A stretch of 48,098 bases of DNA, taken from assembly GCF_016429285.1 (NCBI RefSeq), contig NZ_JAELUI010000026.1, forward strand, positions 1 to 48,098, written 5' to 3'. The DNA is from Ralstonia sp. ASV6 (GTDB lineage Bacteria; Pseudomonadota; Gammaproteobacteria; Burkholderiales; Burkholderiaceae). A program made the translations under genes and the position numbers. A model generated the notes under the pieces. It was given only the letters and a program-made list of their open reading frames with translations, searched no databases and was not told the origin of the DNA. Positions 2,867 through 23,155 of the stretch are shown here, piece by piece (position 1 is the first letter of the stretch; each line of letters begins with the position of its first letter).

Positions 2867-3232
2867 TCAACTCGCCAGCTTCTTGAACGTCTCCAGCACA
2901 GCCTCCCCCTTGAAGGGTTTGACGATCCAGCCCTTCACACCAGCCGCCTTGCCGCGGTCCTTCATGGCCGGGCTGCTTTCCGTGGTGAGCATGATGACGT
3001 TGACTGTCTTGTTGCCCAGCTCGCTGCGCACCTTCTCAACCATCGTCAGGCCGTCCATGTTGGGCATGTTCACGTCGCTGATGACCAGTTTGAGGCCCGG
3101 GTTGGCCTTGATCTTTGCCAGGCCGTCCTTGCCATCCACGGCGGTATCCACCGCCAGGCCGTTCTTCTTCAGGAAGCCGGCCACCTCGTCGCGTACCGTG
3201 CTCGAATCGTCGACCACCAGAATCTTGCTCAT
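2867..3232 (-). CDS. CheY-like single-domain response regulator
   Basis: 121 residues, a stand-alone receiver domain, starting at ATG 3232 after an AGAGGAAAA purine stretch. All receiver residues are present: acidic pair Asp8/Asp9 (VVDDSST), phospho-acceptor Asp53 (ISDVNMPNMDG), Thr83/Thr84 and Lys105 (VKPFKG). It is the last gene of a four-gene chemosensory-like set, 26 bp behind the CheX-like gene. The kinase upstream is its probable phosphodonor and the CheX-like protein its possible phosphatase. Whether it acts on flagellar motors, pili or another output cannot be told from the sequence. Confidence 0.9.
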   Translation of the reverse strand: MSKILVVDDSSTVRDEVAGFLKKNGLAVDTAVDGKDGLAKIKANPGLKLVISDVNMPNMDGLTMVEKVRSELGNKTVNVIMLTTESSPAMKDRGKAAGVKGWIVKPFKGEAVLETFKKLAS

Positions 3233-3258
3233 GGGTTTTTCCTCTTTCTCAATCTGAA

Positions 3259-3792: not shown

Positions 3793-3803
3793 GTCGTATC
3801 TGC

Positions 3804-6904: not shown

Positions 6905-7150
6905 TTGAAATTCTCTCGGTCCAATCGCCACCCCCTTCAAAAGTGGGGGGCATCCTTATGCGTTACCGAACTTCGGAGGCGCAATTATTGGAGTCGAAAG
7001 ATGACCAATCGATGACTGCCACAGCAGAAATCAGGGCATTGCAACATCGCGCCGCTGCGTGCGAGCATCGGACTGCACACCCGTATCCCGCTTGGGTTCT
7101 GGCTGAAATGGCCGCGCACCCTACTCAAGTGGGGAATTAACGGAAAAGGC

Positions 7151-8189: not shown

Positions 8190-8221
8190 CTCGCGCTGCG
8201 TGCTCAGGCTTGCAGCGCGAG
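8190..8221. terminator. Hairpin between converging genes, possible bidirectional terminator
   Basis: A 10-bp perfect stem, CTCGCGCTGC (8190-8199) with GCAGCGCGAG (8212-8221), 12-nt loop. It sits between the DUF2322 stop and the 3' end of the convergent regulator, which it overlaps. No T-run is present. Confidence 0.45.
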
Positions 8222-8944
8222 CGACAGCATAGGATCGGTCAACTGATCGATCCCCTGGTGTGCGACGCGCTCAAGGCGATAGCCCACGTTGTAGACCGCG
8301 CGCAGCCGCACACCATTCTCTTCATGCAACCCGAGCTTGAGCCGCAAGCGTGAGATATGCGTATCGATCGTGCGCGTCATCTGCAGCGTCGTGCGCCCCC
8401 AAACCAGCGCGAAGATGTGGTTGCGCGACAGCGTGCGGTCCATGTTGGTGAACAGCAGCAGCACCAGGCGGGTTTCCGTATCCGTCAGGTCAGCCTGCTC
8501 GCCACAAACCTCGACGACGCGCCGGAACGGGCTGATCTCAAAGTTGCCGATGGTGAAGCTGGTCTGCTGAAAGCTCGCCGGATACACGCGCCGCAGAAGC
8601 GCAGTCACGCGCGCTGCAAACACCGCCGCCCCGGTGGGAATATCCACGTAGTCATCCGCGCCGCCGTTGAGCAGCTTGGCAATCTCGCCGGAGTCGAGCG
8701 TGCTGCCATACACCAGCAAAGGCACGCTGTGCTGCTGCCGGGCGCGCAACACTGCAAGCGCGTCCAGGCTATGTGCGCGGCTCAAACCGTTGTGCAGCAC
8801 GACCAGATCGTATGAGGTCTGGTGAACGGTGCGCAGCAGCGCATCCAGGCTGAAAAAACGAACCACGTCGTGCCTGAGCTGCCCCAACGCGCATTCCACC
8901 CAGTCCCCTTCGATCGTGCCGGAATGAACAAGTGCGACATGCAT
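8204..8944 (-). CDS. OmpR-type winged-helix regulator with a receiver lacking the phospho-Asp
   Basis: 246 residues from ATG 8944, behind AGAGGGA. Residues 1-120 have the length and layout of a receiver domain and residues about 130-232 are a winged-helix DNA-binding domain (TIGNFEISPFRRVVEV, TRTIDTHISRLRLKLGL, VYNVGYRLERV). The receiver is degenerate at every catalytic position: His7-Ser8-Gly9 where the acidic pair should be (ALVHSGT), His51 in place of the phospho-Asp (LVVLHNGLSR), and no Lys after the fifth strand (YVDIPTG). It therefore cannot be controlled by standard Asp phosphorylation. It lies 118 bp downstream of the hybrid kinase on the same strand and may be co-expressed with it. 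Confidence 0.85.
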   Translation of the reverse strand: MHVALVHSGTIEGDWVECALGQLRHDVVRFFSLDALLRTVHQTSYDLVVLHNGLSRAHSLDALAVLRARQQHSVPLLVYGSTLDSGEIAKLLNGGADDYVDIPTGAAVFAARVTALLRRVYPASFQQTSFTIGNFEISPFRRVVEVCGEQADLTDTETRLVLLLFTNMDRTLSRNHIFALVWGRTTLQMTRTIDTHISRLRLKLGLHEENGVRLRAVYNVGYRLERVAHQGIDQLTDPMLSLALQA

Positions 8945-9062
8945 GGCGATCCCTCTATCGTCTGAACTTAAGGCGCCCTCGGGGGGCGTCATCGTTACAG
9001 ACTTTAAAGACCCGAAACCCAGCCGGATATTGGACGCGTACGAAATTGAGTCTGCCGCCGCC

Positions 9063-12000
9063 TCAGTTCGTGAGGTCAACCGGTGCACGCTGCTCGAACA
9101 TATGCTCAGCATGCTCGGCCAACGCATCCAACTGCCGCAGGATTTCGATGCCGGCCCCGCCTCGCAGCAGCAGGCCTTCCAGCTGTTGTGATGCCTCCAC
9201 CAGTGCCACCTCACGCACCACAGCAAAACCGCCCTTGATGAAGTGCATGGACTTGGCCGCCTTGTGGAAGTCGGATTCCACCACGGCGGTACGCGCCTCG
9301 TGCATTGATGTGCGGAACGATGTGGTCAGCGCTGACCAGATCTCGTGCGACAGCGGGCCGCCGTTCTCGAGGCTGCTCACATTGGCCTGCGCCTTGTTCA
9401 GATGCTGCGCGACTTGGCTCTTGCGCTCGGCAATGGGCTGCAGCGCCTGCACCAGGGCGTCAATCGAAAGCGGCTTGACCAACATGTCCGTCATGCCGGC
9501 GGCCTCACACGCGGCACGCTCTTCCACGCTGGCATGCGCGGTCACGGCCAGAACAGGTAACGTCGCCCCCTGGTTGCGCAGGGCACGGCACAGCGCAAAA
9601 CCATCCATGCCAGGCATGCTCAGATCAGTCAGCACCACGTCGTACTGGCTTGCATTGAAGTGCTCCAGTGCTTCGCTGCCGCCCGCGGCGAGCGTGACAT
9701 CGTGGCCAAGCAGCGTCAGCTGATCACGCAGCAGCAAGCGGTTCACCGGGTTGTCTTCTGCCACCAGCACACGCAGCACAGCCCCGTGCGCCTGCGCTGG
9801 ACCCGGCACATCGTTCTGTGTGGGTACAGCAAACTCGCGGGCGCCGCCCAGCAACTGCATCAAGCTGCGCAAGCTGTAGCTGGAGATGACCATGCGTCCG
9901 GCATGGCGGGTTGGCTTGCGCGGCCCGTCGTCGATCACGTCGATGACACGTCGGGCACGTGCCACCAATGCGTCCTCCTCCGCCAGCGGCCAGTTGCGTG
10001 AGCTGCCATGCACCAGCAGCACATCGCACCCGGTGGGCAACGCCGCCGGGGATGCACTCACCTGCACACGTGCACCGCGCGACTGCAGATGTGGCACCAG
10101 CGCCTGCGCCCAGACCTCGTCGCCGCACAGGAACGCGATGGCGACGCTCTGCAACGGCTGGGATGGCTGGGACACAGCATCCGACCCGCTCGCCACGCCC
10201 AGCACCAGCTCAACAGTAAACGTCGAACCACGCCCCGGTGTGCTTTGCACCCGCACAGCCCCATGCATCAATTCGGCCAACCGACGGCACAGCGCGAGGC
10301 CCAGTCCGGTACCACCAAACTTGCGCGTGATGGAAGTGTCGGCCTGCGTGAAGGCTTGGAACAACGCGCTCTGCTTGTCTTCGGCAATACCGATGCCCGT
10401 GTCCGCCACCTTGAACGCCAGCCGCGCCTGCTCGCCGTGCCCGCTGAGCGGCTCTACCGCAATGCATACGCTACCCGCCTGTGTGAACTTGATGGCATTG
10501 CTCAGCAGGTTGTTGAGAATCTGCCGCAAGCGTGTCGGATCGCCCAGGTAGCGTTGCGCGAGGGTGGGCGCAATTCGGTAATGCAGCGTCAGGTCCTTGG
10601 CCTCAGCCACTGGCAGGAAGACGGCGATGACCGACTCCACCACCTCCACCACATCAAACGGGATCGACTCCAGGTGCATCTGGCCGGCTTCGATCTTGGA
10701 GAAATCGAGAATATCGTCGATCAGTGCAACCAGCGTATGCGACGAGGTAGAGACCACTTCCAGCCGATCGCGCTCCACACCGTGCAGCGTTTGCGCGTGC
10801 TGGATGAGCTCGAGATTACCGAGAATGGCATTCAACGGCGTGCGAATCTCATGACTCATCGTGGCGAGAAACGAGGACTTGGCGCGGTTGGCCTCTTCCG
10901 CAGCAGTGCGGGCGTCGTTGAGCGCGCGCTCGGTCTGCTTGCGTGATGTGATGTCGATAAAGCTGCAGAGCAGCGCGTCTTCGCCCTGATACTTGGTGGG
11001 GACAAGATCGACATGCAGTTCGGCGATTCGCCCGCCCGGCCCATCGACTTCGATCTCGCGGCTGACTGCGGCGCCTGGTGCGTGGTGGTCTTCACGATAC
11101 GCGCCCAGCAGCCTCCGGTGCAGTGGGTGGCCCTGGGTGTGGTAGTGGCCAGCCACCTCGTTCTGCAGCAGTAGTTCGCCCGACCCAAACGCAATCAGGC
11201 TCAGACCCACAGGCGCCGTCCCGATAATGGTGCGGCTCAGGTTCTCGCTTTCGTACACTCGCAGCGACTGAAGGTATGCAGGCCGGAACACGCGATAGTG
11301 GAACAGCAGTACAAAGGTCCAGATCAGGACCAACATGACCAGTACTGCGGCCACATACGCCCACAGAGAATCCTGCAGTGCGCTCAGGATCGTTCGCCAC
11401 GAATAGGTGTAGACCAGCACCCAACCGGTTTCGGAAAGGGGCTCGCTGATCGTGAACACGCCGTCGTGATAGCTGCTGTCGGTTTGCGTGAGCCCGCGCT
11501 TCCACATGCCGTCCTGCACCACCTTCATCGTCAGCGCGTGAGCACGCTCTGGCGACGTCTCCTGACTGCCGAAACCTTCGAGCAGCACATCACCGCTCTT
11601 GGACAGCAGCAGCATGTTGCCGTCATACGGCGCCTGATCGAGCCGATTGGAAAGCACCCGGACCGGCAGATCGCTCACAAACACGATGAACGGCTTGTCA
11701 CCGTCAAACGCCGGCTGCACGAGCTTGAACACGTTGTCGCCCGTAAACGGATCGGTATGCGGCGGTATCCACATGACCTTGCGGCTCTCCAGCAGCTTGC
11801 GGTCAACCTCAGGGTCATTCAGATCTCCAATATCCTTGGCCAACGCATGGATGAGCTCGGCCAGTGAATGCGCTTTCACGGCCTGCAGCGGATCGCCCGT
11901 TCTTGGCGGCGGCATGATCGATACGAACTTCTCGTCGGGCGAGTAGTAATAGCCGGTCAGCAGTTGACCCCGTTGGCGGGCACTGGCACTGGCGGTAAAG

Positions 12001-12446
12001 GCCTGTTCCTCGCTGAATGCAAGGTAATTGGAATAGGCCTCCGGCGCTTTGGCTCCCAGGTCTCCCAATGCAAGCTGGGGTTCAAGGCTGGGGTTGGCCC
12101 GAAGGTAAGCACGCCCCCCCTGCATCTTGAAATCACGCAGCAGGGCAGCGCGGGCGGGGCGATGTTCACCCCAGAGGAATTCCGCATTGATGACTCCGCG
12201 CTGAAGCGCGGCCTGCTTGGTCTCTACATCAATCAGCAGCAACGCCTTGTGGGTAATGAAGGTTTCTCGCCCGTCGGCAATGTAGTTCGAGATCTTTACG
12301 TAGGCCCCGATTCCAGCCACAACGAGAACCACCAGCGACAGCACGGCCGCACCGCCAAACAGCATGCCGCGTTGCATCTTGCCGAAGGCGCCCAGCTCCT
12401 TGAATCCGGGCACACGGCGCAGCCAATGCGGGGGTTGGGTCAACAT
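9063..12446 (-). CDS. RcsC-like hybrid sensor kinase with its own Hpt domain
   Basis: 1127 residues. TM1 (28-50) and TM2 (360-383) flank a periplasmic sensor of about 310 residues; then a PAS-like segment (402-500), DHp with His532 ([10 protein letters not shown]), HATPase (N-box Asn650, DTGIG at 682, GGTGLGL), an alpha-beta insert (about 765-870), a receiver with Asp941 ([11 protein letters not shown]) and a C-terminal Hpt with His1068 (MHFIKGGF). The kinase / insert / receiver order resembles Enterobacteriaceae RcsC, whose ABL domain sits at the same place; here the Hpt, provided in trans by RcsD there, is fused. Expected relay: His532 to Asp941 to His1068 to an RcsB-like regulator. Such a regulator is divergently encoded at 12890. 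The start at ATG 12446 has a poor ribosome binding site. Confidence 0.9.
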
Positions 12447-12889
12447 GGTGTTCTTGGTGAATTTGACAAAGCGCTACTGTATTGCGCCGTTGCGGCCCTG
12501 TGCGTCTGCGCCGTGCTTTTTCGTACTTGTACGACGCATCTTGAGCCTTTCGATCTTGTCCTATTATGCGAACGGGCCGGGAGACCGACAATGCACTGCG
12601 CAATATTGTGCGTTCACTGTCCGAATATGCCAGTCAGATCGGTTACGCCTACGTCGTTGATTGGGCGATCACACCCCTGTCAACACAGACCCTTCTGGAG
12701 CCGGGGCGCCTTTCAGCGGCAAAGAAAAGCGCTCTATACTGCATTTGAATATGGTCTTACGTGTCCCCCTCCAGGATCGACGGGAATCCATCCTGTAAGG
12801 ACGAAACGGGCTGGCAGAGCACCAATAAGTACATCGCTGCGCGACAACAACAATCGCACCATCGCGTCAAACCGGGGAATCACATCACC
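12447..12889. promoter_or_regulatory. Divergent control region, hybrid kinase / RcsB-like regulator
   Basis: 443 bp without a convincing gene (small frames here lack ribosome binding sites). It carries both divergent promoters and the inverted repeat at 12520-12535, which recurs upstream of the autotransporter. Candidate -35/-10 elements are too poor to call. Confidence 0.5.
12520..12535. promoter_or_regulatory. 7-2-7 inverted repeat, candidate regulator operator (copy 1)
   Basis: TTCGTAC-TT-GTACGAC: perfect over the inner 6-2-6 and 6 of 7 pairs overall. It is 74 bp upstream of the kinase start codon. The same element (TTCGTAC-GA-GTACGAA) occurs at 13980-13995. The 7-2-7 geometry is that used by NarL/FixJ-family dimers. 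Confidence 0.5.
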
Positions 12890-13567
12890 ATGAAGGATCC
12901 TGTTCGGCTGCTGCTGGCGGACGATCATCCAGCCATCATTGCAGGGGTGAAATTTGCTGTCGGCAATGCAGAAGGCATCGAGATCATCGGGACGTCACCA
13001 AGCTCGACCGAGATGGTCGCGTTCCTGGATCGAAACCCGTGCGACGTGCTGGTGACCGACTACGCCATGCCTGGCGGCAACTATGGCGACGGTATCCCGC
13101 TGCTTTCCTTCATCCTGCGCCGCTACCCCGGGGTGCGCGTGCTCGTGCTAACCATGATGGACAACCCCGCCGTGCTCTCGGCGATTGCCGCGACGGGTGT
13201 GCAGGGTGTTCTGAGCAAATCCGACGACCTCACGCACATCGTGCCGGCCGTGCATGCCGCCATGCTGGGGCAGTCGTACTTCTCGCCAACGGCACGGACC
13301 ATTCTGGATACGTCCAAAGAGACACAAGGCCCGGGCACACAAACCCTGACGCGCCGCGAAAGCGAGGTGGTGCGACTGTTCGTGTCGGGGCTGTCGGTTG
13401 GGGAGATTGCCGAGCGGCTGCACCGCAGCAAGCAGACCGTCAGCACACAGAAGAACTCCGCCATGCGCAAGCTGGGCCTGGAACGTGAAGCCGACCTGTT
13501 CCGCTATGCGATTGAGACCGGCCTGGTTTCTGCCGCAACAACCGCGCAGCCCGACGCCAAGATTTGA
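12890..13567 (+). CDS. RcsB-like (NarL/FixJ family) response regulator, copy 1
   Basis: 225 residues from ATG 12890, behind GGGGA. The receiver has Asp11/Asp12 (LLADDHP), phospho-acceptor Asp57 (VTDYAMPGGNYGDG), Thr near 88 and Lys near 110 (LSKSDD). The C-terminal LuxR-type helix-turn-helix is LTRRESEVVRLFVSGLSVGEIAERLHRSKQTVSTQK. The TDYxMPGG..YGDG and KTVSxQKxxAMxKLG motifs are RcsB-like. It is divergent from the hybrid kinase and very similar to the regulator at 18465. By context it is the kinase's output and a regulator of the adjacent autotransporter; the relation resembles RocS1/RocA1 and PvrS/RcsC-RcsB systems that control fimbriae in Pseudomonas. Confidence 0.9.
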   Translation: MKDPVRLLLADDHPAIIAGVKFAVGNAEGIEIIGTSPSSTEMVAFLDRNPCDVLVTDYAMPGGNYGDGIPLLSFILRRYPGVRVLVLTMMDNPAVLSAIAATGVQGVLSKSDDLTHIVPAVHAAMLGQSYFSPTARTILDTSKETQGPGTQTLTRRESEVVRLFVSGLSVGEIAERLHRSKQTVSTQKNSAMRKLGLEREADLFRYAIETGLVSAATTAQPDAKI

Positions 13568-13570
13568 AGT

Positions 13571-13774
13571 TCACGTGGTTTTGCCGGCGCCCGCAACAAG
13601 CGGCTCCAGGCTGGCGCATTCTGCATGCTCCCATTCGTGCATTTGCGATCGCCGTTGATGCGGCGACGCAAGCATGAACTGATTCAGTTGAGTAAGAAAT
13701 GCCCTCTGCTCCGCAGCAGAAAGCCGGGCAAAGCCAAGAAGAAGGTGTGCGAGAGGCAGGGAAGTCAGGGGCAT
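13571..13774 (-). CDS. Possible small hypothetical protein
   Basis: 67 codons from ATG 13774. The translation has a natural-looking amphipathic helix (FARLSAAEQRAFLTQLNQFMLASPHQRRS) with none of the Arg/Ala/Pro bias of antisense frames here. There is no clear ribosome binding site and I do not know the family. It is convergent with the RcsB-like gene ending at 13567. Confidence 0.35.
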   Translation of the reverse strand: MPLTSLPLAHLLLGFARLSAAEQRAFLTQLNQFMLASPHQRRSQMHEWEHAECASLEPLVAGAGKTT

Positions 13775-13979
13775 CGTCTAAGCATCTTGAGGGCCGATCA
13801 AACATCGTTGCCTGATGGGATCGATTGTCGGATGAACCCCGCCCGCCCGTAATCGGACGACAACGAAATGCATTGCGCATCTCTACACACAGAGTTCGGC
13901 CCTGGTGAATACCGCTCGCCGCTGCAGCGCCTGTACTGAGGCACGATCCTCCTCGGCTGCGCCCAACCCCTCCCCCCGC

Positions 13980-13995
13980 TTCGTACGAGTACGAA
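13980..13995. promoter_or_regulatory. 7-2-7 inverted repeat, candidate regulator operator (copy 2)
   Basis: TTCGTAC-GA-GTACGAA, a perfect 7-2-7 inverted repeat 111 bp upstream of the autotransporter start. An additional GTACGA half-site follows at 14010-14015. It matches the element at 12520-12535 except for the spacer and one outer base. Confidence 0.55.
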
Positions 13996-14047
13996 ATCAA
14001 GACGACTCAGTACGAGGTGCAGTCGTTTTAGTACTCGTCAGATAGTT

Positions 14048-14061
14048 TAAGAATCGTCTGA
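14048..14061 (+). promoter_or_regulatory. RcsB-box-like element
   Basis: TAAGAATCGTCTGA matches 10 of 14 positions of the RcsAB box TAAGAATATTCCTA, including the whole TAAGAAT half. It is 45 bp before the autotransporter start. The 10-mer ATCGTCTGAA that overlaps it also occurs at 8957-8966, just before the Asp-less regulator gene. Confidence 0.4.
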
Positions 14062-14106
14062 AAAATACAGTGACTCCCGTCAGATCAATCCATCTCAGGA
14101 GTCACC

Positions 14107-17100
14107 ATGAACAAGACCTATCGCAGCATCTTCAACACGGCCACCGGCACCTGGGTGGCCGCCTCGGAAACCGCCAAGAGCCGCAGGAAGTCCGGTGGTC
14201 AGCGCACGCTGGCACGCGTTTCGGTTGTACTCGCCGCCGTAACGCTGAGCCTTGGCGCTACGCAGTCCTTCGCTTACGTTGCCGGTACGGGCGCGCAACA
14301 GGGCAATGCCAACAACACCGTCATTGGCGATAACGCCAACGGTAGCGCAGCAGGCTGCAACAGCACCTACCTGCCCGGCTCTGCATGCAGCACGATCATC
14401 GGTAACAGCGCCTCTTCAACGGCTGGAGCGACCACGGTCATCGGTGACCACGCCTCCGCAACGGGTTCCAACTCCACCGCGATCGGCGCGTACGCCAGTG
14501 CTGCACAATGGTCCCAAGCCATTGGTGCTGGCGCGGCAGCCACGGGTGGCTGGGCCACGGCCATTGGCCAAAGCGCTCAGGCGACCGCCACCAACACAAC
14601 CGCAATCGGCACCAACTCCACGGCGCTCGGCAACGGCGCGACGGCGCTTGGCAGCGGCGCGCACGCCACGCAGCAAGATAGCTTTGCGATGGGTTGGAAT
14701 GCCAATGCCACCGCGCAGGGTTCCATGGCTTTTGGCACAAGCGTAACGTCCGCTGGCGTCAACGCCGTGGCGCTGGGGATGGGAGCAAAAACAACTGCCA
14801 ATGACTCCGTCGCCTTGGGCTCCGCCAGCGTGGCCGACCGTGCCAATACCATCTCGGTCGGCGCGCAAGGCAGCGAACGCCAAGTGGTGAACATGGCCGC
14901 CGGTGTTGCCGATACCGACGCGGTGAACGTCTCCCAGCTCAAGCCGGTGCTTACCGGACTGGGCGGCGGCGCATCCATTGACCCGGCCACCGGCGTGGTG
15001 ACGGGCCCAACCTACAAGGTGCAGGGCGGTACGCAAGACAACGTTGGGGCAGCGCTCGACGCGTTGAATGACGGTGTCAACGACCGCGTTGCTTACGACA
15101 AGAATGGCGACGGCAGTACCAACTACAACAGTGTGACGCTGGGCAATGGCCTTGCGTCTGGCCCGGTGGCACTACACAACGTGGCGCCAGGTGTCGCTGA
15201 TCTGGATGCGGTGAACATGTCGCAGCTCAACGCGACCAACGCGCAGGTCGCACAAAACACCACGGCCATCGAGAACATGGCGAACGGCAGCCGATTCATT
15301 GCCGCGTTCCAGAACACGGGTACGGCGGCATCTGCGCCTGTAGGACCGAACTCGCTCGCCGTGGGACAAAGCGCAGTGGCCAGTGGAAACGCCGCTAACG
15401 CGTTCGGTTCCAGCGCCAGAGCAACCAACAACGGTGCCACCGCTGTTGGCAATAGCGCATCAGCAGGCGGAAACAACGCAACAGCAATCGGCTACGGCTC
15501 CAACGCATCCGGCGGAAACGCCTTTGCCATCGGTACGAGCTCCGCCGCGGCAGCGCAGGGTAGCGTTGCAATGGGTGCCAATGCCAAAGTAAACGCGAGC
15601 GCAAGCAGTTCAACCGCGCTGGGCTACGGTGCCACCGTGGCAGCAAACGTGACATCTGCTGTTGCGCTGGGCGCGAGCAGCACCAATACGCGCAGCAACA
15701 CCGTTTCAATGGGCTCGACCGGAAACGAGCGCCAAGTCACCAACGTCGCTGCAGGCACGGCTGATACCGACGCAGTCAACGTCAACCAGCTCAGCGCGGC
15801 AACCACCCAGCTTGGCGATCAAATCACGACGGTGAACAACAACCTGACCACGCTCGGGGATCAGATCACCGCCGGCCAAATCGGGCTGGTGCAGCAGGCA
15901 GCTGCCGGTGCGGACCTCACGGTAGGTGCCGGCACGGACGGCACACGCGTGAACTTCGCCGACAAGGATGGCAACACCCGCACACTGGCCAACGTCAGCG
16001 ATGGTATTGCCGACACCGACGCCGTGAACGTTGGCCAACTCAACACGACGGCCACGCAGCTTGGCGACCAGATCACGACCGTGAACAACAATGTGACCAA
16101 GCTGGGCGACCAGATCTCGTCCGGTCAAGTAGGCCTGGTACAGCAAGCTGCAGCCGGCGCTGACCTGACCGTCGGCGCCGGCACCGACGGCGCACGCGTG
16201 AACTTTGCCGACAGGAGCGGCGCAACCCGAACGCTGGCGAACGTCAGCGCGGGCACTGCCGCCACCGATGCGGTGAACGTTCAGCAACTGCGTACTGAAC
16301 TGGCCAACGCCAGCGCAAGCGACATGGCCTACTTCCAGGCAGACGGCTGGAGCAACAAGGCAGACGTTGCCAAGGTTGCCGCTGGCTCCCGGGGCGTGGC
16401 GATTGGCGCCAATGCCAATGCAACCGGCGAGAACTCCGTTGCCCTGGGTGCGGACTCCGTTGCCGATCGTGACAACGTGGTCTCGGTGGGCTGGGGCATG
16501 GGCGGCAACGGCACGCGCCAGATCATCAACGTGGCCAATGGCAACGAGAACACCGACGCAGTGAATGTGCAGCAACTCAAGCCGGTCATTGCGGGCCTTG
16601 GCGGCGGCGCCAAGATTGACGCGAACACGGGCGTCGTCACCGGCCCGACGTACAACGTGCAGGGTGGCACGCAGAACGACGTTGGCACGGCACTTGACGC
16701 ACTCGACACCGGACTGACGACTGCGCAAGGGGACATCGCCAATCTGGATGGCCGTGTCACGAACAACGAAACCAATATCACCGACCTGCAGAAGCAGATT
16801 GGCGACGGTTCGGTGGGCCTGGTGCAACAAGACGCGACCACCCGCAACATCACGGTGGCGGCTGGCACCGATGGGGGCGTGGTGGACTTCACCGGCAAAG
16901 CAGGTGCACGCCAACTGACCGGCGTGGCCGACGGCACGGTGACGGACGGCAGCACCGACGCGGTGAATGGCTCGCAGCTGTATGCAACCAACCAGCAAGT
17001 GGCCAAGAACACGGGAGACATCACCACGATCAACTCCAACGTAACCGCCCTTGATGGCCGCGTGACGACCAACGAAACCAACATCACCAACCTGCAGAAG

Positions 17101-18366
17101 CAGATTGGCGATGGTTCGGTGGGCCTGGTGCAACAAGACACGACCACCCGCAACATCACCGTAGCCGCTGGCACCGACGGAGGCGTGGTGGATTTGACCG
17201 GCACGGCGGGCGCACGCAAGCTGACGGGGGTGGCGAACGGCACGAGCGACCACGATGCAGTGAATGTGAGCCAGCTCAAGCAGAGCGGTTTGATCGACAA
17301 CAACGGCAATGCGCTGGCAGCCGTGACGTATGACGTGAACACAGACGGTTCGGTCAACTACAGCAGCGTGACGCTTGGCGGCCAGAATGCAGCAGGCCCG
17401 GTGCAGCTCCATAACGTCGCAGATGGCACGGCAGAAACCGACGCCGTGAACCTGCGCCAACTCAAGCAAGCCGGCCTGGTCGACAACAACGGCAACACGC
17501 TGGACGCCGTGACCTACGACGCAGGTTCAAACCGCACGCAGGTCACCTTCGGCAATGCGGGGGCACCGGTGCTGCTGTCGAACGTGCAAGCCGGCATGGC
17601 GGATACGGACGCGGCCAATGTCGGCCAGTTGCGTGGCCTGGCCAGCGGGCTGGGCGGCGGAGCCGGGATCGGTGCAGACGGTGCATACATCGCGCCGAGC
17701 TATACCTTCAACGACGTGACCTACAACAACGTGGGTGACGCCTTGAGCGGGTTGGCAACGCAGATTGGCCAGACCGGCGACCGCATCACCACGGTTGAGA
17801 AAGTGATCTCCACGGGTGAGTCCAACGCACACGTTGCCACCAGCGGCGATCAAGCCAACGCGGCCTCGGCAACCGGCGGCGACGCGGTGGCAATTGGTGC
17901 CGGCGCCTCGGCATCGAACACGAACAGCGTGGCGCTGGGCGCGGGCTCGACCACAGATCGTGACAACACGGTCTCGGTCGGCTCGGCCGGCAGCGAGCGC
18001 GCCATCACCAACGTGGCAGATGCCGTGATGAGCACCGATGCCGTCAACAAGCGCACGATGGATACAGCAGTGGCAGGCGCCAAGAGCTACACCGACCAGC
18101 AGATCGGCATGGTGCAGCAAGCACTGGGAGATGTCTCGCGCAAGGCCTACTCCGGCATTGCCGGTGCCACGGCGCTCACCATGATCCCGGATGTGGATCA
18201 GGGCAAGACGATTGCGGTGGGCGTAGGCGTGGGCTCGTATCAGGGCTATGCAGCATCTGCCATCGGGGTGAGCGCGCGCCTGAACGATCGCATCAAGGTC
18301 AAGATGGGCGCGAGTGTGAGCGGTGCAGGCACCACCTACGGCGCAGGCGCGTCGTATCAGTGGTAA
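14107..18366 (+). CDS. Trimeric autotransporter adhesin (YadA/Hia-like)
   Basis: 1419 residues from ATG 14107, with AGGAG 7 nt upstream. The N-terminus is an extended signal peptide region (ESPR) MNKTYRSIFNTATGTWVAASE followed by the hydrophobic core, cleaved near SFAYVAG. The passenger is a long run of YadA-head repeats (TAIGxxAxAxGxNxxALG), neck motifs (ADTDAVNVxQL, repeated many times) and coiled-coil stalk segments (LGDQITTVNNNLT, LDGRVTNNETNI). The last 100 residues are the YadA anchor: a coiled coil (KSYTDQQIGMVQQ) and four strands ending GAGASYQW with terminal aromatic Trp. The product is an outer-membrane trimer for adhesion or autoaggregation. It lies between two RcsB-like regulators and is probably their target. 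Confidence 0.95.
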   Translation: MNKTYRSIFNTATGTWVAASETAKSRRKSGGQRTLARVSVVLAAVTLSLGATQSFAYVAGTGAQQGNANNTVIGDNANGSAAGCNSTYLPGSACSTIIGNSASSTAGATTVIGDHASATGSNSTAIGAYASAAQWSQAIGAGAAATGGWATAIGQSAQATATNTTAIGTNSTALGNGATALGSGAHATQQDSFAMGWNANATAQGSMAFGTSVTSAGVNAVALGMGAKTTANDSVALGSASVADRANTISVGAQGSERQVVNMAAGVADTDAVNVSQLKPVLTGLGGGASIDPATGVVTGPTYKVQGGTQDNVGAALDALNDGVNDRVAYDKNGDGSTNYNSVTLGNGLASGPVALHNVAPGVADLDAVNMSQLNATNAQVAQNTTAIENMANGSRFIAAFQNTGTAASAPVGPNSLAVGQSAVASGNAANAFGSSARATNNGATAVGNSASAGGNNATAIGYGSNASGGNAFAIGTSSAAAAQGSVAMGANAKVNASASSSTALGYGATVAANVTSAVALGASSTNTRSNTVSMGSTGNERQVTNVAAGTADTDAVNVNQLSAATTQLGDQITTVNNNLTTLGDQITAGQIGLVQQAAAGADLTVGAGTDGTRVNFADKDGNTRTLANVSDGIADTDAVNVGQLNTTATQLGDQITTVNNNVTKLGDQISSGQVGLVQQAAAGADLTVGAGTDGARVNFADRSGATRTLANVSAGTAATDAVNVQQLRTELANASASDMAYFQADGWSNKADVAKVAAGSRGVAIGANANATGENSVALGADSVADRDNVVSVGWGMGGNGTRQIINVANGNENTDAVNVQQLKPVIAGLGGGAKIDANTGVVTGPTYNVQGGTQNDVGTALDALDTGLTTAQGDIANLDGRVTNNETNITDLQKQIGDGSVGLVQQDATTRNITVAAGTDGGVVDFTGKAGARQLTGVADGTVTDGSTDAVNGSQLYATNQQVAKNTGDITTINSNVTALDGRVTTNETNITNLQKQIGDGSVGLVQQDTTTRNITVAAGTDGGVVDLTGTAGARKLTGVANGTSDHDAVNVSQLKQSGLIDNNGNALAAVTYDVNTDGSVNYSSVTLGGQNAAGPVQLHNVADGTAETDAVNLRQLKQAGLVDNNGNTLDAVTYDAGSNRTQVTFGNAGAPVLLSNVQAGMADTDAANVGQLRGLASGLGGGAGIGADGAYIAPSYTFNDVTYNNVGDALSGLATQIGQTGDRITTVEKVISTGESNAHVATSGDQANAASATGGDAVAIGAGASASNTNSVALGAGSTTDRDNTVSVGSAGSERAITNVADAVMSTDAVNKRTMDTAVAGAKSYTDQQIGMVQQALGDVSRKAYSGIAGATALTMIPDVDQGKTIAVGVGVGSYQGYAASAIGVSARLNDRIKVKMGASVSGAGTTYGAGASYQW
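15811..16308 (+). repeat. Tandem duplication inside the autotransporter (83-codon unit)
   Basis: Units 15811-16059 and 16060-16308 encode nearly the same segment: LGDQITTVNNN..., GLVQQAAAGADLTVGAGTDG and a neck motif TDAVNV. The period is 249 bp, in frame. Confidence 0.75.
16744..17300 (+). repeat. Second duplication inside the autotransporter (102-codon period)
   Basis: Segments starting at 16744 and 17050 both encode LDGRVT-N-NETNIT followed by LQKQIGDGSVGLVQQD and TTRNITVAAGTDGGVVD. They are offset by 306 bp. The second unit diverges after the neck motif (end approximate). Confidence 0.7.
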
Positions 18367-18371
18367 CGCAG

Positions 18372-18399
18372 TCAATCAATCAATCGATCGATCGATCGG
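18372..18399. repeat. Short tetranucleotide tracts after the autotransporter stop
   Basis: (TCAA)3 at 18372-18383, then TCGA three times and TCGG to 18399. The tract is outside the coding sequence, between the TAA stop and the terminator. Confidence 0.7.
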
Positions 18400-18404
18400 C
18401 ACAG

Positions 18405-18432
18405 AACGGCCCCCGTCTTTGGGGGCCGTTTT
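18405..18432 (+). terminator. Intrinsic terminator of the autotransporter gene
   Basis: A 10-bp perfect GC-rich stem, AACGGCCCCC (18405-18414) with GGGGGCCGTT (18421-18430), 6-nt loop, ending in a run of four T (18429-18432). It is 38 bp after the stop and only 32 bp before the next start codon. Confidence 0.85.
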
Positions 18433-18464
18433 CTCGCCACCGATCCGGACGTGTGTTGAATCCA

Positions 18465-19145
18465 ATGAAAACTCCCATTCGACTGTTGCTCGCTGACGAT
18501 CACCCCGCCGTCATCGCCGGCGTGCGCGCGGCGATCGAGCCAATCAGCGACATCAGCATCATCGATACGGCCTGTAGCTCCACCGAGGTGGTCGCACTCC
18601 TGGATCGCCAGCCGTGCGACGTGCTGCTGACCGACTACGCCATGCCCGGCGGGGATTACGGAGACGGTGTTCCGTTGCTCTCGTTCCTCATGCGTCGCTA
18701 CCCGGCCTTGCGCATTGTCGTGCTGACGATGCTGGACAACCCGGCAATCCTGTCGGGAATCATCGCCACAGGTGTACAGGGCGTGCTGAGCAAATCCGAC
18801 GATGTCGAACACATCGTGCTTGGGGTGCGCTCCGCGATGGGGGGGAAGACGTACTTCTCGCCAACCATGCAAGCGATCTTCAACACAACGCGCGAGTTGC
18901 AAGGCCCCGGCATGCGCCCCCTGAGCCGCCGAGAGACCGAGGTTGTCCGCCTGTTCGTGTCGGGCTTGTCGATTGGTGAGATCGCGCAGCGCCTGCAAAG
19001 AGGCAAGCAGACCGTCAGCACGCAGAAGATGATGGCCATGCGAAAGCTCGGCATTGAGCGCGAAGCAGACCTGTTCCGCTATGCCATCGAGGTGGGATTG
19101 GTCTCTTCATCGGCAGCACTGCCGGATGCCCATCCGCGGTCCTGA
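18465..19145 (+). CDS. RcsB-like (NarL/FixJ family) response regulator, copy 2
   Basis: 226 residues from ATG 18465; the ribosome binding site is weak. The receiver has Asp11/Asp12, phospho-acceptor Asp57 (LTDYAMPGGDYGDG) and Lys near 110 (LSKSDD). The LuxR-type helix-turn-helix LSRRETEVVRLFVSGLSIGEIAQRLQRGKQTVSTQK has nearly the same recognition helix as the regulator at 12890. The two are clear paralogues, aligned without gaps across most of their length. There is no second hybrid kinase nearby, so both may take phosphate from the kinase at 9063-12446. It is placed between the autotransporter and the fimbrial operon. A strong terminator 32 bp upstream leaves little room for its own promoter. 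Confidence 0.9.
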   Translation: MKTPIRLLLADDHPAVIAGVRAAIEPISDISIIDTACSSTEVVALLDRQPCDVLLTDYAMPGGDYGDGVPLLSFLMRRYPALRIVVLTMLDNPAILSGIIATGVQGVLSKSDDVEHIVLGVRSAMGGKTYFSPTMQAIFNTTRELQGPGMRPLSRRETEVVRLFVSGLSIGEIAQRLQRGKQTVSTQKMMAMRKLGIEREADLFRYAIEVGLVSSSAALPDAHPRS

Positions 19146-19294
19146 CACGCACGTCCTCCCGGTTTCGTTGTCAGCGTGCACCTCGCAGTGCATTTCGAAC
19201 GCGTCCGATTTCGGACTGACGGCGTACTGCCAATAATCGCATCGCGTGCACAAACACCGCATCGCATCTAACAACTTCTTTGAACTGAAACCCC

Positions 19295-19813
19295 ATGAAA
19301 AAAGCTCTCGCAGCCGCTGCACTTGCAGCCCTGTCCGCATCCGCCCTTGCTGCCGGCACCGGCAACCCGGGCACCATCACGTTCAACGGTGAAATCGTTG
19401 CAGGCGCCTGCGGCATCAGCGGCGACACGCTGGACCAGACCGTCTCGCTGGGCCAGGTTCCGGCCAACACGTTCGCCAAGCTGGGGGACCGTTCGCAAGC
19501 CACGCCGTTCAACATCCAGCTGACCGACTGCGACACGACCACCGCCAAGAACGCGTTCTTCACGTTCACCGGCACGGCCGACACGGTCACCCCGGGCCTG
19601 TTCGCCACCACCGGCAGCGCCAGCAACGTGGGTGTGCGCCTGCAAAGTGCCGCCGGCGAATACCTGGACAACGGTACCGAACAGAAGGCCCCGGTCGTGC
19701 TGTCCAACGGCAACAACACCGTTCAGTTCGCTGCCATGTACGAAGCGACCGCCGCAACGGTCACGCCGGGCCTGGCCAACTCGGTGGCCAACTTCACCGT
19801 GCGTTACCAGTAA
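19295..19813 (+). CDS. Type 1-like major fimbrial subunit
   Basis: 172 residues. A signal peptide (1-20, MKKALAAAALAALSASALAA) is followed by a pilin domain with the conserved disulfide pair Cys39 (GEIVAGACGI) and Cys79 (LTDCD), and a C-terminal NSVANFTVRYQ strand with the penultimate Tyr used in donor-strand exchange. It should be secreted to the periplasm, bound by the chaperone at 22415 and assembled through the usher at 19929. First gene of a four-gene chaperone-usher operon. There is a 149-bp region upstream after the RcsB-like gene, in which I could not call a promoter. The ribosome binding site is weak. Confidence 0.92.
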   Translation: MKKALAAAALAALSASALAAGTGNPGTITFNGEIVAGACGISGDTLDQTVSLGQVPANTFAKLGDRSQATPFNIQLTDCDTTTAKNAFFTFTGTADTVTPGLFATTGSASNVGVRLQSAAGEYLDNGTEQKAPVVLSNGNNTVQFAAMYEATAATVTPGLANSVANFTVRYQ

Positions 19814-19854
19814 AGACAGTGCTACGTGCGCCCGACACATCGGGTGCACTTTTG

Positions 19855-19876
19855 GGGGGCGCGAGCCCCCTTTTTT
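19855..19876 (+). terminator. Intrinsic terminator between pilin and usher genes
   Basis: GGGGGC (19855-19860), loop GCGA, GCCCCC (19865-19870), followed by TTTTTT (19871-19876). It lies 41 bp after the pilin stop and inside the operon, so it should lower usher, chaperone and adhesin expression relative to the pilin. Confidence 0.85.
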
Positions 19877-19928
19877 CTTCCTTTTCTCCGCCTCGCCTGC
19901 CGGAAGTGCCCCCCCCGGCCTCATCGAC

Positions 19929-22418
19929 GTGAACCTCAAGCTACGCGTGCTCTGCGCCAGCCTTGCCGCCCTCGGTCTAACAGCACATGCTCGGGCGACC
20001 GAATTCAATTCATCGTTCCTCAGCATCGATGGGGCAAACGACGTGGACCTCTCGCAGTTCGCGCGCGCAGACTACACACCACCGGGCACCTACCTGCTGG
20101 ACGTGGTACTCAACGGTCAGCTGCTGCAACGCGAGAGCATCGTGTTCGTGCCGTCATCGTCAGATCCCGGCATCAGCCAAGCCTGCCTGCCGGCAGCCCT
20201 GGTGGATCAGTTTGGCTTGAAAGCAGCCATTCGAAACGCATTGCCCACTACGCAGGAGAGCAACTGTGTCGACCTCGGCACCATTGAAGGCGCCTCTGTC
20301 CGGCACAACAAGGGCAAGGGGCAGCTCCAGATCACAGTGCCGCAGGTGGCACTGGAATATGCAGACCCGAACTACATTCCGCCGCAGCGTTGGAGTGATG
20401 GCATTCCGGGCGCGATGCTCGACTATCGCGTCATCGGCACCACACAGAATGCACCCGGCGGAACCACCAATACGCTGCAAGCCTACGGCACAGTCGGCGC
20501 AAATGCGGGCGGCTGGCGCCTGCGGGGCGACTATCAAGCGCAGACATCCTCTGGCTCGGCGGCCAACTTTGGCGGCTCAAGCAGCGCGTTCCAGTTCAAT
20601 CGCCTGTACGCCTATCGCGCGCTGCCCAGCATTCAGTCGACGATCTCGCTCGGGCAGACGTACCTGAGCTCCGACATCTTTGACACGTTCGCACTGGACG
20701 GCGCAGCCATCCAGAGCGACGACCGCATGTTGCCGCCCGGCATGCGCGGATACGCCGCGCCCATCACCGGCGTGGCACGCACATACGCCATGGTGACGGT
20801 ATCGCAGCAGGGGCGCGTGCTGTATGCCACGCGCGTGCCCCCCGGTGCGTTTGCGTTGCAGGATTTTTCCGCCAACGTGCAAGGCACGCTGGACGTCACC
20901 GTGCAGGAAGAAGATGGGTCGGAGCAGCACTTCACCGTCACCACCTCTGCGGTGCCTTTCCTCGCACGCGAGGGAGAATTGCGCTACAAGGCCGCCGCGG
21001 GCCAGCCGCGCTTGTTTGGTGGGAATGGCATCTCGCCCACCTTCGGTTTTGTTGAAGCCGCTTATGGCCTTCCTCACGAGCTGACGGTCTACGGCGGTAC
21101 CATCGGGGCAGACGGCTATGCATCGGTAGCGTCTGGCATGGGTAAGAACCTGGGCAAACTGGGCGCTATCTCTGCAGACGTGACCTTCGCCCGTGCCCGC
21201 CTATGGTGGAACGGCGATACGCAAACGGGCCGCTCGTATCGCTTCAACTACGCCAAGCATTTCGACACGCTCGATTCGGACCTGCGCTTTTTCGGTTACC
21301 GCTTTTCTGATCGCACCTACACCAGCTTCCCGCAATTCTTTGGCGACCCGACCGCTGCCGGCCTGGCTGGCAGCCGCCAACGGGTTTCCTTGTCATTGGC
21401 CAAACGACTGGGCGATGTCTCAGCCTTCTTGTCGTTGGACCACACCAGCTATTGGAACCGCTCGCCGGATGATCGCCTTGGGTTGACGCTGACGCGCACG
21501 GTGTCGATCGGCTCGGTACGCAACATCTCGCTCAACGTGTCGGCGTACCGCACGCGCGGCGTGACGGGCAACGGCAATCAGGTCTTCCTGGCGATGACGA
21601 TTCCGCTGGGCAACCGTCAAGTGGTGTCGACCAGCGTCACATCCTCCAGCACGGGCGGCACCAACATCAGCACGGGCTACTCCGGCGGTGACGACCATGG
21701 ACTGAGCTATGCCGCCTACGCCGGCACCAACGACGGTCGTGCATCGTTCAGCGCCAACGTGCGCAAGCAGACCAGCGCAGTGCAAGTCAATGCGCAGGCC
21801 TCGGCCACCGGCAATGCCTACAGCGCAGCCTCGCTTGAGTTGGATGGCTCCTTGGTGGCAACGCAATACGGGATCGAGCCGCACGCGGTCGGCACCAATG
21901 GTGATACGCGTCTCCTTGTTTCGTCTGACGGCGTGCCGGATGTGGCCTTCTCCGGCTCGCAGGCCAGGACGGACGCCCGCGGCTATGCCGTGATCGGCTC
22001 GGTGGCGCCGTTCAACCCGTATGACGCCCGCGTCAATACCAACGCCATGTCACTGGAGACCACGGTGGCCAATCCTGTACAGCGCGTCGTCCTGACGGAT
22101 GGCGCCATCGGCTTCCTGCGCTTTGACGCCACGCACGGAAGCAACGCCTTGGTGGCACTGACACTGCCATCGGGCAAAGAAGTGCCGTTTGGGGCTTCCG
22201 TCATCGACCTGACCAGCGGCAAGGAGTTGGGCATCGTTGGCGAACATGGCGTCGTGTATCTCGCAGGCGTTCGATCGGACACCGTGCTGTCCGTCCGGCA
22301 AGCGGACCATGCCGTCTGTGAAGTCGGCCCCGTCAAGCAAACGCTCCACCTGACGCCAGACCCCATCCCGATGTCCTGCGTGGCGTCGGCCACCCCCACT
22401 CCGACACCCTCATCATGA
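19929..22418 (+). CDS. Fimbrial outer-membrane usher (PapC/FimD family)
   Basis: 829 residues from GTG 19929, the only in-frame start that gives a clean signal peptide (LRVLCASLAALGLTAHARA); no good ribosome binding site is visible. The usher N-terminal domain begins FNSSFLSIDGANDVDLSQF, then DYTPPGTYLLDVVLNG. The long beta-barrel with plug follows (GFVEAAYGLPHELTVYGG, FRYSLSLAKRLG-type strands), and the C-terminal domain has a Cys pair in HAVCEVGP...PMSC. It translocates chaperone-subunit complexes. Its stop overlaps the chaperone start as ATGA, implying translational coupling. Confidence 0.92.
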   Translation: MNLKLRVLCASLAALGLTAHARATEFNSSFLSIDGANDVDLSQFARADYTPPGTYLLDVVLNGQLLQRESIVFVPSSSDPGISQACLPAALVDQFGLKAAIRNALPTTQESNCVDLGTIEGASVRHNKGKGQLQITVPQVALEYADPNYIPPQRWSDGIPGAMLDYRVIGTTQNAPGGTTNTLQAYGTVGANAGGWRLRGDYQAQTSSGSAANFGGSSSAFQFNRLYAYRALPSIQSTISLGQTYLSSDIFDTFALDGAAIQSDDRMLPPGMRGYAAPITGVARTYAMVTVSQQGRVLYATRVPPGAFALQDFSANVQGTLDVTVQEEDGSEQHFTVTTSAVPFLAREGELRYKAAAGQPRLFGGNGISPTFGFVEAAYGLPHELTVYGGTIGADGYASVASGMGKNLGKLGAISADVTFARARLWWNGDTQTGRSYRFNYAKHFDTLDSDLRFFGYRFSDRTYTSFPQFFGDPTAAGLAGSRQRVSLSLAKRLGDVSAFLSLDHTSYWNRSPDDRLGLTLTRTVSIGSVRNISLNVSAYRTRGVTGNGNQVFLAMTIPLGNRQVVSTSVTSSSTGGTNISTGYSGGDDHGLSYAAYAGTNDGRASFSANVRKQTSAVQVNAQASATGNAYSAASLELDGSLVATQYGIEPHAVGTNGDTRLLVSSDGVPDVAFSGSQARTDARGYAVIGSVAPFNPYDARVNTNAMSLETTVANPVQRVVLTDGAIGFLRFDATHGSNALVALTLPSGKEVPFGASVIDLTSGKELGIVGEHGVVYLAGVRSDTVLSVRQADHAVCEVGPVKQTLHLTPDPIPMSCVASATPTPTPSS

Positions 22419-23155
22419 AGCGACGCTTTCCTACCCATTTCTACCGGCTAGCCAGTATTGCCCTCACCCTGCAACTGTGTGCCGCAGCCGCTCAGGCTGC
22501 CGTGGTGCCGGATCGCACCCGAGTCATCTATAACGCCGATGCGCAATCGGAAAGCCTGACCATCGCCAACAAGAGCACGACCTACCCCTACGTCGTGCAG
22601 TCATGGATTGAAGACAGCGCTGGCAAACGCATCACATCGCCATTCATGGTGCTGCCGCCACTGCAGCGCATCGAGCCAAACGAGCGCAACGTCCTGCGTA
22701 TCGTGAAACTGCCGGGCGATGCGCTGCCCACCGACCGCGAATCGGTGTTCTACCTGAACGTACGCGAGATCCCACCCAAGACCGACGCGCAGAACGCGAT
22801 CCAGATCGCCCTGCACTCCAAGATCAAGCTGTTCTATCGGCCCAAGGGTGTACAGCCCAAGCAGGATGAAGATGTGTCTCTGGCGATGACGCTGCGGCTG
22901 GATGCTGCACATCACAAGCTGGTGTTCGATAACCCGACGCCTTATCACGTCACCGTGGTTGAGTTGGCCGCCGGTGAAGAGAAGAAGACGCTCAAGTTCG
23001 ACGCTGTGATGATCGAGCCCAAGGCCAATGCCGAAGTGGACTTCACCGGCACGTTGCCCAGCACGCTCTATGTGTCGCACATGAACGATTGGGGCGGGCA
23101 GAACGCTGTCAAGTATGCGTGTGACGCCACCCTTTGCCGGAGCGTGCAGCCATGA
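22415..23155 (+). CDS. Periplasmic pilus chaperone (PapD-like)
   Basis: 246 residues, start overlapping the usher stop (ATGA at 22415-22418). Signal peptide 1-28 (ends AAAAQAA). The PapD fold is shown by VVPDRTRVIYNADAQSESLTIANKS (strand A1 with the conserved Arg), the PFMVLPPLQRIEPNERNVLRIV block with the G1-type motif, the signature ESVFYLNVREIPPK, and IKLFYRPKG with its Lys. It caps and stabilises pilin subunits by donor-strand complementation. The stop overlaps the adhesin start as ATGA. Confidence 0.93.
   Translation: MKRRFPTHFYRLASIALTLQLCAAAAQAAVVPDRTRVIYNADAQSESLTIANKSTTYPYVVQSWIEDSAGKRITSPFMVLPPLQRIEPNERNVLRIVKLPGDALPTDRESVFYLNVREIPPKTDAQNAIQIALHSKIKLFYRPKGVQPKQDEDVSLAMTLRLDAAHHKLVFDNPTPYHVTVVELAAGEEKKTLKFDAVMIEPKANAEVDFTGTLPSTLYVSHMNDWGGQNAVKYACDATLCRSVQP

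What the first reader, a model, noticed from the sequence alone, without database searches (positions are those of the whole stretch)
8204..19145. RcsC/RcsB-like phosphorelay locus built around a trimeric autotransporter
Seen: one hybrid kinase (His532, Asp941, His1068) that carries in a single chain what RcsC and RcsD split between them, an alpha-beta insert at the position of the RcsC ABL domain, and two intact RcsB-like regulators (Asp57 in both) on either side of a 1419-residue YadA-like adhesin, with a chaperone-usher operon beyond. Established: RocS1/RocA1 and PvrS/RcsC-RcsB in Pseudomonas link similar kinase-regulator pairs to Cup fimbriae. Inference: the locus coordinates two adhesin types from one sensor. 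Two regulators for one kinase, with an autotransporter as central target, is not an arrangement I know.
Basis: partly seen in the sequence, partly recalled or inferred. Interest (0 to 1): 0.72.

Follow-up and report, generated by a model that had tools for sequence, protein, structure and literature searches.

The report
Adhesin locus with shared DNA operator
A Ralstonia locus joins one sensor kinase and three gene regulators to two kinds of sticky surface protein; the parts are known from Burkholderia, but they appear to share a DNA switch site that regulators of this type may read by a simple two-residue code.

Summary
The parts described are present: an unorthodox RcsC-like kinase, two intact RcsB-like regulators, a 1419-aa trimeric autotransporter (TAA), a chaperone-usher operon. 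The arrangement is not new: the Burkholderia cenocepacia TAA cluster (BCAM0218-0228) has the same gene kinds with 39-42% identical kinases; 4 of 95 relative loci hold kinase, two regulators and TAA, and three Ralstonia loci (one in this genome) kinase, TAA and usher.

New here is a 7-2-7 palindrome, TMGKACnnGTMCKA. The window has five sites (0-1 mismatch), all upstream of the TAA, kinase/regulator 1, OmpR-like and pilin genes (0 of 100 shuffles reach five). Many relatives carry it upstream of TAA, pilin, kinase or regulator genes, often in tandem 32 or 51 bp apart. GTAC half-sites go with regulators of helix S-K-Q-T, GTCC with S-K-K-T (and some S-K-Q-T); E. coli RcsB (S-I-K-T) reads TTCC. I infer that the kinase and regulators co-control adhesin, their own genes and, less surely, the fimbria. 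The kinase insert at the RcsC-ABL position is predicted to fold like a receiver.

The parts
8204..8944 (-). OmpR-type regulator with degenerate receiver (no phospho-Asp), like the gene at the BCAM0228 position
   Evidence: Pfam Trans_reg_C 63 bits, Response_reg below cut-off; Burkholderia homologues L143, L162, L187, L188 also lack the Asp
9063..12446 (-). Unorthodox hybrid kinase: 2 TM, periplasmic sensor, HisKA (H532), HATPase, insert, REC (D941), Hpt (H1068)
11382..12284 (-). Periplasmic sensor domain (about residues 55-355), probably dCache-like
   Evidence: profile of 46 homologues matches four sensor chains at E 3.8e-6 to 8.4e-4 (7k5n, 6pxy, PctB, PctC); that these are dCache folds is recalled; the fold job did not finish
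9834..10151 (-). Insert at the RcsC-ABL position, receiver-like alpha/beta fold without phospho-Asp
12521..12534 (.). Operator, exact TMGKACnnGTMCKA, in the divergent kinase / regulator 1 region
12890..13567 (+). RcsB-like response regulator 1 (helix RSKQTVSTQK)
13981..13994 (.). Operator, exact, upstream of the TAA gene
14010..14015 (+). Half-site GTACGA between the two TAA operators
   Evidence: read
14029..14042 (.). Proximal TAA operator (1 mismatch), 48 bp from the first; resembles the proximal site of pilin promoters in Cupriavidus and Herbaspirillum
14107..18366 (+). Trimeric autotransporter adhesin, 1419 aa
   Evidence: ESPR, YadA head, stalk and anchor
18465..19145 (+). RcsB-like response regulator 2 (helix RGKQTVSTQK), 71% identical to regulator 1
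19195..19208 (.). Operator-like site (1 mismatch) upstream of the pilin gene; no tandem partner
9030..9043 (.). Operator-like site (1 mismatch) upstream of the OmpR-type gene; no tandem partner
19295..19813 (+). Major pilin (LpfA/FimA-like, below the cut-offs of those models)
19929..22418 (+). Outer membrane usher
22415..23155 (+). Periplasmic chaperone
23134..24168 (+). Fimbrial tip-type subunit
   Evidence: PF00419; 'tip' is inferred from its place and length

Best explanation
This is an adhesin locus run by an RcsC/RcsB-type phosphorelay. Inferred: the kinase senses a periplasmic ligand and passes phosphate H532 to D941 to H1068 to D57 of two sister RcsB-like regulators. Inferred from sequence statistics: these bind 7-2-7 palindromes (TMGKACnnGTMCKA) in the TAA promoter, the kinase/regulator 1 intergenic region and, more weakly, the pilin and OmpR-like promoters, so that one sensor drives the adhesin, its own genes and probably the fimbria. 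Regulator 2 is an in-place duplicate of regulator 1. The OmpR-type pseudo-receiver is a phosphate-independent co-regulator (inferred). Shown: gene content, intact residues, operators and their recurrence in relatives. Not shown: phosphotransfer, binding, expression.
For: Relay residues and regulator residues intact. All 5 window sites with at most 1 mismatch lie in the locus's own intergenic regions, none elsewhere in the 48 kb; 0 of 100 shuffles reach 5. Two of the three exact places in the 5.9-Mb genome are here. Relatives' sites crowd upstream of key genes: GTAC in S-K-Q-T loci 27 of 42 (p 3e-14), GTCC in S-K-K-T loci 26 of 35 (p 1.7e-15), GTCC in S-K-Q-T loci 22 of 42 (p 1.9e-9) (these p-values treat near-copies as independent). 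Second sites stand 32 or 51 bp away: 48 and 17 hits against a mean of 1.7 per offset for 147 primary sites; held-out set 7 and 3 against 0.3 for 25 primary sites. Eleven of 13 S-K-Q-T loci with an exact GTAC site have no OmpR-like gene in the stretch held, which points to the RcsB-like proteins as readers. Kinase and regulators share near relatives: Herbaspirillum L115, Comamonas L102, Duganella L111, Solimicrobium L131.
Against: No wet evidence. The window's pilin, kinase and OmpR-like sites have no 32- or 51-bp partner, and the TAA pair is 48 bp apart, not 51. Three Ralstonia loci with kinase, TAA and usher operon (L062, L068, L072) show no site in the scanned promoters. Only 27 of 58 S-K-Q-T loci have a GTAC site with at most 1 mismatch, and a comparison half-site, GTTCKA, gave 47 such sites in 25 of these loci, though only 2 exact ones. 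Neither regulator gene has a site close to its start; the nearest to regulator 1 is about 360 bp away. One of three exact genomic places (C330:8511) is not near adhesin genes, and the reversed control pattern is commoner in the genome than the pattern (13 against 3 per strand).
Confidence: 0.7

Rival explanations
1. The palindrome is read by the OmpR-type pseudo-receiver protein, not by the RcsB-like regulators.
For: One site lies upstream of its own gene, and an OmpR-type gene without the phospho-Asp is a recurrent partner in Burkholderia TAA clusters.
Against: 11 of 13 S-K-Q-T loci with exact GTAC sites have no such gene within the stretch held. A 7-2-7 inverted repeat is usual for LuxR/NarL-type domains and not for OmpR-type ones (recalled). 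Half-site letters follow the RcsB-like recognition helix.
Confidence: 0.1
2. Only the TAA (and the kinase) is under this system; the fimbrial operon is a neighbour with its own control.
For: The pilin site has a mismatch and no tandem partner.
Against: Kinases of this type lie within the same stretch as an usher gene in 22 of 95 relative loci, including two Paraburkholderia loci with the same gene order pilin-usher-chaperone-tip (L105, L122), and in Burkholderia the operator lies upstream of pilin genes.
Confidence: 0.25
3. The two regulators are not redundant: one is activated by the kinase and the other antagonises it or serves a different operator set.
For: Paired regulators recur: 21 of the 61 relative loci with a kinase have two or more.
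Against: They are sisters (71% identity, support 100/99) with the same K-Q pair.
Confidence: 0.3
4. The S-K-Q-T / GTAC and S-K-K-T / GTCC link is shared ancestry and not a recognition code.
For: Only three independent contrasts are available, which cannot reach significance; S-K-Q-T loci also carry GTCC sites (6 of 103 non-redundant regions).
Against: Those contrasts went the same way in 2.8 of 3 on average and never the other way. The residue that varies aligns with RcsB K180, one of two residues that touch bases in the RcsB-DNA structure (PMC5829831 passages; alignment).
Confidence: 0.35

Closest known systems
Burkholderia cenocepacia TAA cluster BCAM0218-BCAM0228
   Same: Homologous kinases at both ends (42% over query 15-749 and 39% over 20-755), two RcsB-like regulators, an OmpR-type regulator without phospho-Asp, TAA genes; GTCC-type sites (1 mismatch each) in tandem at 51 bp before a TAA gene
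   Different: Two kinases and three TAAs; regulators are S-K-K-T; kinases have no room for the insert (16-17 residues between the aligned parts); no usher or chaperone gene found in the 40 kb read
CblSTR / cable pili of B. cenocepacia
   Same: Kinase/response-regulator control of pili (passages); the HK-RR-HK-pilus loci of Burkholderia found here look like this type (inference) and several carry GTAC operators before pilin genes
   Different: Uses two kinases, a hybrid and an unorthodox one; the window has one
P. aeruginosa PA14 RcsCB/PvrSR and cupD
   Same: Unorthodox kinase and RcsB acting on a fimbrial promoter with RcsAB-box-like sites (passages)
   Different: Second sensor and an EAL regulator; no TAA mentioned in the passages seen
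E. coli RcsC/RcsD/RcsB
   Same: Best NCBIfam match for kinase and regulators; one alignment through the kinase, 36% identity
   Different: RcsD is a separate gene; the window's proteins score far below the equivalog cut-offs; RcsB helix is S-I-K-T

Membership tests
Rcs phosphorelay (RcsC, RcsB) | RcsC equivalog score (NF008099, cut-off 920 bits) | tested here: not met
   438 bits, best family
Rcs phosphorelay (RcsC, RcsB) | RcsB equivalog score (NF008098, cut-off 235 bits) | tested here: not met
   162 and 154 bits, best family
Rcs phosphorelay (RcsC, RcsB) | Kinase chain without an Hpt of its own (the Hpt is on RcsD) | tested here: not met
   Hpt motif H1068 in the same chain; a separate RcsD was not looked for
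Rcs phosphorelay (RcsC, RcsB) | ABL domain between HATPase and receiver | tested here: inconclusive
   Insert at that position, BLASTP alignment runs through it, hhalign to the RcsC stretch weak (14.9% probability, 45 columns); model receiver-like
BCAM0218-0228-type TAA regulatory cluster | Homologous kinase with periplasmic sensor | tested here: met
   42% identity over query 15-749
BCAM0218-0228-type TAA regulatory cluster | Two RcsB-like regulators beside a TAA gene | tested here: met
BCAM0218-0228-type TAA regulatory cluster | OmpR-type regulator next to the kinase | tested here: met
BCAM0218-0228-type TAA regulatory cluster | Response to BDSF | not testable with these tools
   reported for BCAM0227 (PMC4504480 passages)
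CblSTR-type fimbrial control | Two kinases, hybrid plus unorthodox | tested here: not met
   one kinase of this family in the window
CblSTR-type fimbrial control | RcsB-like regulator beside a chaperone-usher operon | tested here: met
   CblR itself was not compared

The most novel reading that the evidence does not exclude
A family-wide adhesin operator and a two-residue recognition code for RcsB-type regulators. In the half-site xTyCKA, residue 1 of the pair sets x (I with T, K with G) and residue 2 sets y (K with C, Q with A). TAA, pilus and kinase genes of Burkholderiales and Xanthomonadales would be wired to their sensors by this operator, in tandem at 32 or 51 bp.
Probability: 0.55. Interest if true: 0.7.

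Novelty: new variant of a known kind. Interest (0 to 1): 0.55.

Why it matters
The locus is a new combination of known modules. The operator would give a readable link between orphan sensors and their adhesins, including the published B. cenocepacia TAA cluster. A review draws phosphotransfer from BCAM0227 to BCAM0228 (PMC4504480, passages), yet the protein at that position lacks a phospho-Asp here, so the two RcsB-like regulators are better candidates. The code would make regulons predictable from protein sequence and can be tested in vitro.

Tried and rejected

Led nowhere: Burkholderiaceae-wide exact double-site pattern (13 of 398 genomes, some matches coding by look); order-wide search with a Collimonas regulator (5 of 220 genomes at E 1e-50); promoter scan (1 site found against 3.0 expected); exact site at C330, with no adhesin genes by eye. 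The class test on held-out loci had too few S-K-K-T loci (3) and gave Fisher p 0.46. Independent-pair test: 3 pairs, p 0.25. The sensor-domain fold job (ticket) had not finished at the last poll.

Not in print, as far as searched: no paper on a 7-2-7 operator for these regulators was seen in the listings (listings, not whole texts). The CblR paper of Tomich and Mohr is not held, so a CblR site in it cannot be excluded.

Rows dropped before counts: L121, L127, L142 and L169 (same contigs as L067, L070, L071, L072) were left out; still held them. A locus counted as S-K-Q-T if any of its regulators is; a mixed site (one GTAC and one GTCC half) counts in both lists. Of 40 loci fetched for the held-out test 13 were kept (less than 10% shared 24-mers). 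Two of 86 kinases, both of L150, had no receiver found and were left out of the insert count. In the kinase tree the 'noinsert' label of the two NCTC13227 kinases was set by hand. The 33 promoter sites were picked by hand.
Full report
What is there. The locus runs from 8204 to 24168: OmpR-type regulator(-), kinase(-), regulator 1(+), TAA(+), regulator 2(+), pilin(+), usher(+), chaperone(+), tip-type subunit(+). The third regulator was passed over: its winged helix is intact but its receiver has no phospho-acceptor Asp, and this is also so in the Burkholderia homologues L143 and L162, L187 and L188; L138 is cut before that position.

Relatives. Four double fetches were dropped. Of the 95 left besides the window, 61 hold a kinase of this type, 21 a kinase with two or more regulators, 22 a kinase with an usher gene, 9 a kinase with a TAA, 3 kinase, TAA and usher (all Ralstonia: L062 of this same genome, L068, L072), and 4 kinase, TAA and two or more regulators (L103, L138, L143, L171). 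None of the 95 holds all of them, within stretches of about 20 kb that are sometimes cut. The arrangement is thus a new combination of a known kind. The published TAA cluster of B. cenocepacia has two kinases, three regulators and three TAAs (PMC3404963, passages). In NCTC13227 (which I recall to be strain J2315) the kinases at the two ends are 42% and 39% identical to the window's and have no room for the insert, and two RcsB-like regulators, TAAs and the OmpR-type gene lie between or beside them; BCAM numbers are assigned by position. BCAM0227 is reported to respond to BDSF and to pass phosphate to BCAM0228 (PMC4504480, passages). The protein at that position has no phospho-Asp here, which does not fit.

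History. Regulators 1 and 2 are sisters (71% identity, 100/99), nearest to a Herbaspirillum regulator (L115), and not to the other Ralstonia regulators in the tree. The kinase tree, a quick tree, gives the same kin: Herbaspirillum L115 and Comamonas L102, then further Oxalobacteraceae. In the genus, kinases at E 1e-100 or better occur in 4 of 16 genomes, this one included, and outside this locus the best is 38% identical. The locus is an accessory one, perhaps acquired, with regulator 2 a later copy (inference). Two Paraburkholderia loci (L105, L122) have kinase, S-K-Q-T regulator and a pilin-usher-chaperone-tip operon with no TAA found, so the TAA looks like the addition.

The operator. By eye the kinase and TAA upstream regions share TTCGTACnnGTACGA. 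With up to 2 mismatches the window has 6 matches, both strands counted, against 0.33 expected. In the whole genome the perfect form occurs at two places only, both here. The wider form TMGKACnnGTMCKA has three exact places in the genome, two of them here; the reversed control pattern has 13 per strand, so the form is rare genome-wide but concentrated in this locus. With up to 1 mismatch the window has five sites: 9030 (before the OmpR-type gene), 12521 (between kinase and regulator 1), 13981 and 14029 (before the TAA), 19195 (before the pilin). None lies elsewhere in the 48 kb and none of 100 shuffles reaches five.

The operator in relatives. A count of all 7-2-7 half-sites alike, upstream of TAA, pilin, kinase and usher genes, ranks GTACTA and GTACGA high in loci with S-K-Q-T regulators and GTCCTA and GTCCGA in loci with S-K-K-T regulators; GC-rich words such as TCGCCG, GCCGGC and GCGGCG rank as high or higher in the raw count. 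Against all 180 orderings of their letters GTACGA and GTCCGA rank first in their classes. In non-redundant regions GTAC sites occur in 19 of 103 S-K-Q-T and 0 of 59 S-K-K-T regions, GTCC sites in 6 of 103 and 11 of 59 (Fisher on these region counts 2e-5). Over whole loci, sites gather upstream of the key genes: GTAC in S-K-Q-T loci 27 of 42, GTCC in S-K-Q-T loci 22 of 42, GTCC in S-K-K-T loci 26 of 35, GTAC in S-K-K-T loci 0 of 1, where such regions make up 13-14% of the DNA. Many loci have none: GTAC with at most 1 mismatch is in 27 of 58 S-K-Q-T loci, GTCC in 21 of 31 S-K-K-T loci. Of ten half-site types compared, GTTCKA was as frequent as GTACKA in S-K-Q-T loci at 1 mismatch (47 against 42 sites) though not in exact form (2 against 19).

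Tandem spacing. Around 33 hand-picked promoter sites a second, looser site lies exactly 32 bp on in 15, at 31 in one, at 51 in three TAA promoters of Burkholderia; the window's TAA pair is 48 bp apart; the window's kinase, OmpR-type and pilin sites have none. Without choosing promoters, 147 primary sites in the relatives give 48 partners at 32 bp and 17 at 51 bp against a mean of 1.7 per offset; 25 primary sites in 13 held-out loci give 7 at 32 bp and 3 at 51 bp against 0.3. Pairs in which both members are primary count twice, and near-copies among Burkholderia loci are not independent. This spacing was not used to find the motif. The window's proximal TAA site, TAGTACTCGTCAGATAG, resembles the proximal sites of pilin promoters in Cupriavidus (L129) and Herbaspirillum (L115).

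The code. In the RcsB-DNA structure K180 and S184 are the two residues that make sequence-specific base contacts, in half-sites given as TTAGGAA (reverse complement TTCCTAA) and TCTAAGA (PMC5829831, passages). The varying pair (K-Q, K-K, and I-K in RcsB) aligns with I179-K180. So S-I-K-T, S-K-K-T and S-K-Q-T go with TTCC, GTCC and GTAC. Caveats: three independent contrasts only; S-K-Q-T loci also hold GTCC sites and mixed ones; in the held-out set the S-K-Q-T loci have 10 GTAC sites in 5 of 8 loci and the S-K-K-T loci none in 3, too few for a class test (p 0.46).

Mechanism and verdict. Most likely the kinase phosphorylates the two sister regulators, which bind these operators and switch on the TAA, the kinase/regulator genes and probably the fimbria; the OmpR-type protein adds a phosphate-independent input. 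Steps shown: parts, residues, operators, recurrence, spacing. Steps inferred: signal, phosphotransfer, binding, direction of control. Against the model: the kin loci L062, L068 and L072 lack the operator in the scanned promoters, and the pilin site is weak. The locus alone is an ordinary relative of published clusters; the operator and the code raise the interest.

Noticed in passing
window 2867-6940 (-): Chemosensory-like cluster: CheY-like protein, a protein with no Pfam match, an MCP-signalling-domain protein, and an 806-aa CheA-like protein that itself carries 4HB_MCP, HAMP, Hpt and HATPase domains.
   Followed up: partly
window 35111-43207 (-): pgaABCD-like operon for a poly-GlcNAc exopolysaccharide with a LuxR-type regulator upstream, so three adhesion systems lie on one contig.
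   Followed up: no
L187:14047-15039 (-), B. cenocepacia NCTC13227: The OmpR-type protein at the BCAM0228 position has no receiver Asp, although a review draws phosphotransfer from BCAM0227 to it.
   Followed up: partly
Burkholderia loci such as L137, L153, L154: Kinase pairs around one regulator: the first has the receiver-like insert and no Hpt found, the second has Hpt and no insert, a division of labour that recalls RcsC/RcsD or CblS/CblT.
   Followed up: partly
L115:433 and 1203, Herbaspirillum sp. BIN44: Mixed operators with one GTAC and one GTCC half before pilin genes, in a locus where one S-K-Q-T regulator sits inside an S-K-K-T clade.
   Followed up: no
G026 C2:2309232 and 2318287: The same 45-bp stretch with a GTAC palindrome occurs twice, 9 kb apart; the second copy lies in L065, which holds a kinase and two S-K-Q-T regulators.
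   Followed up: no
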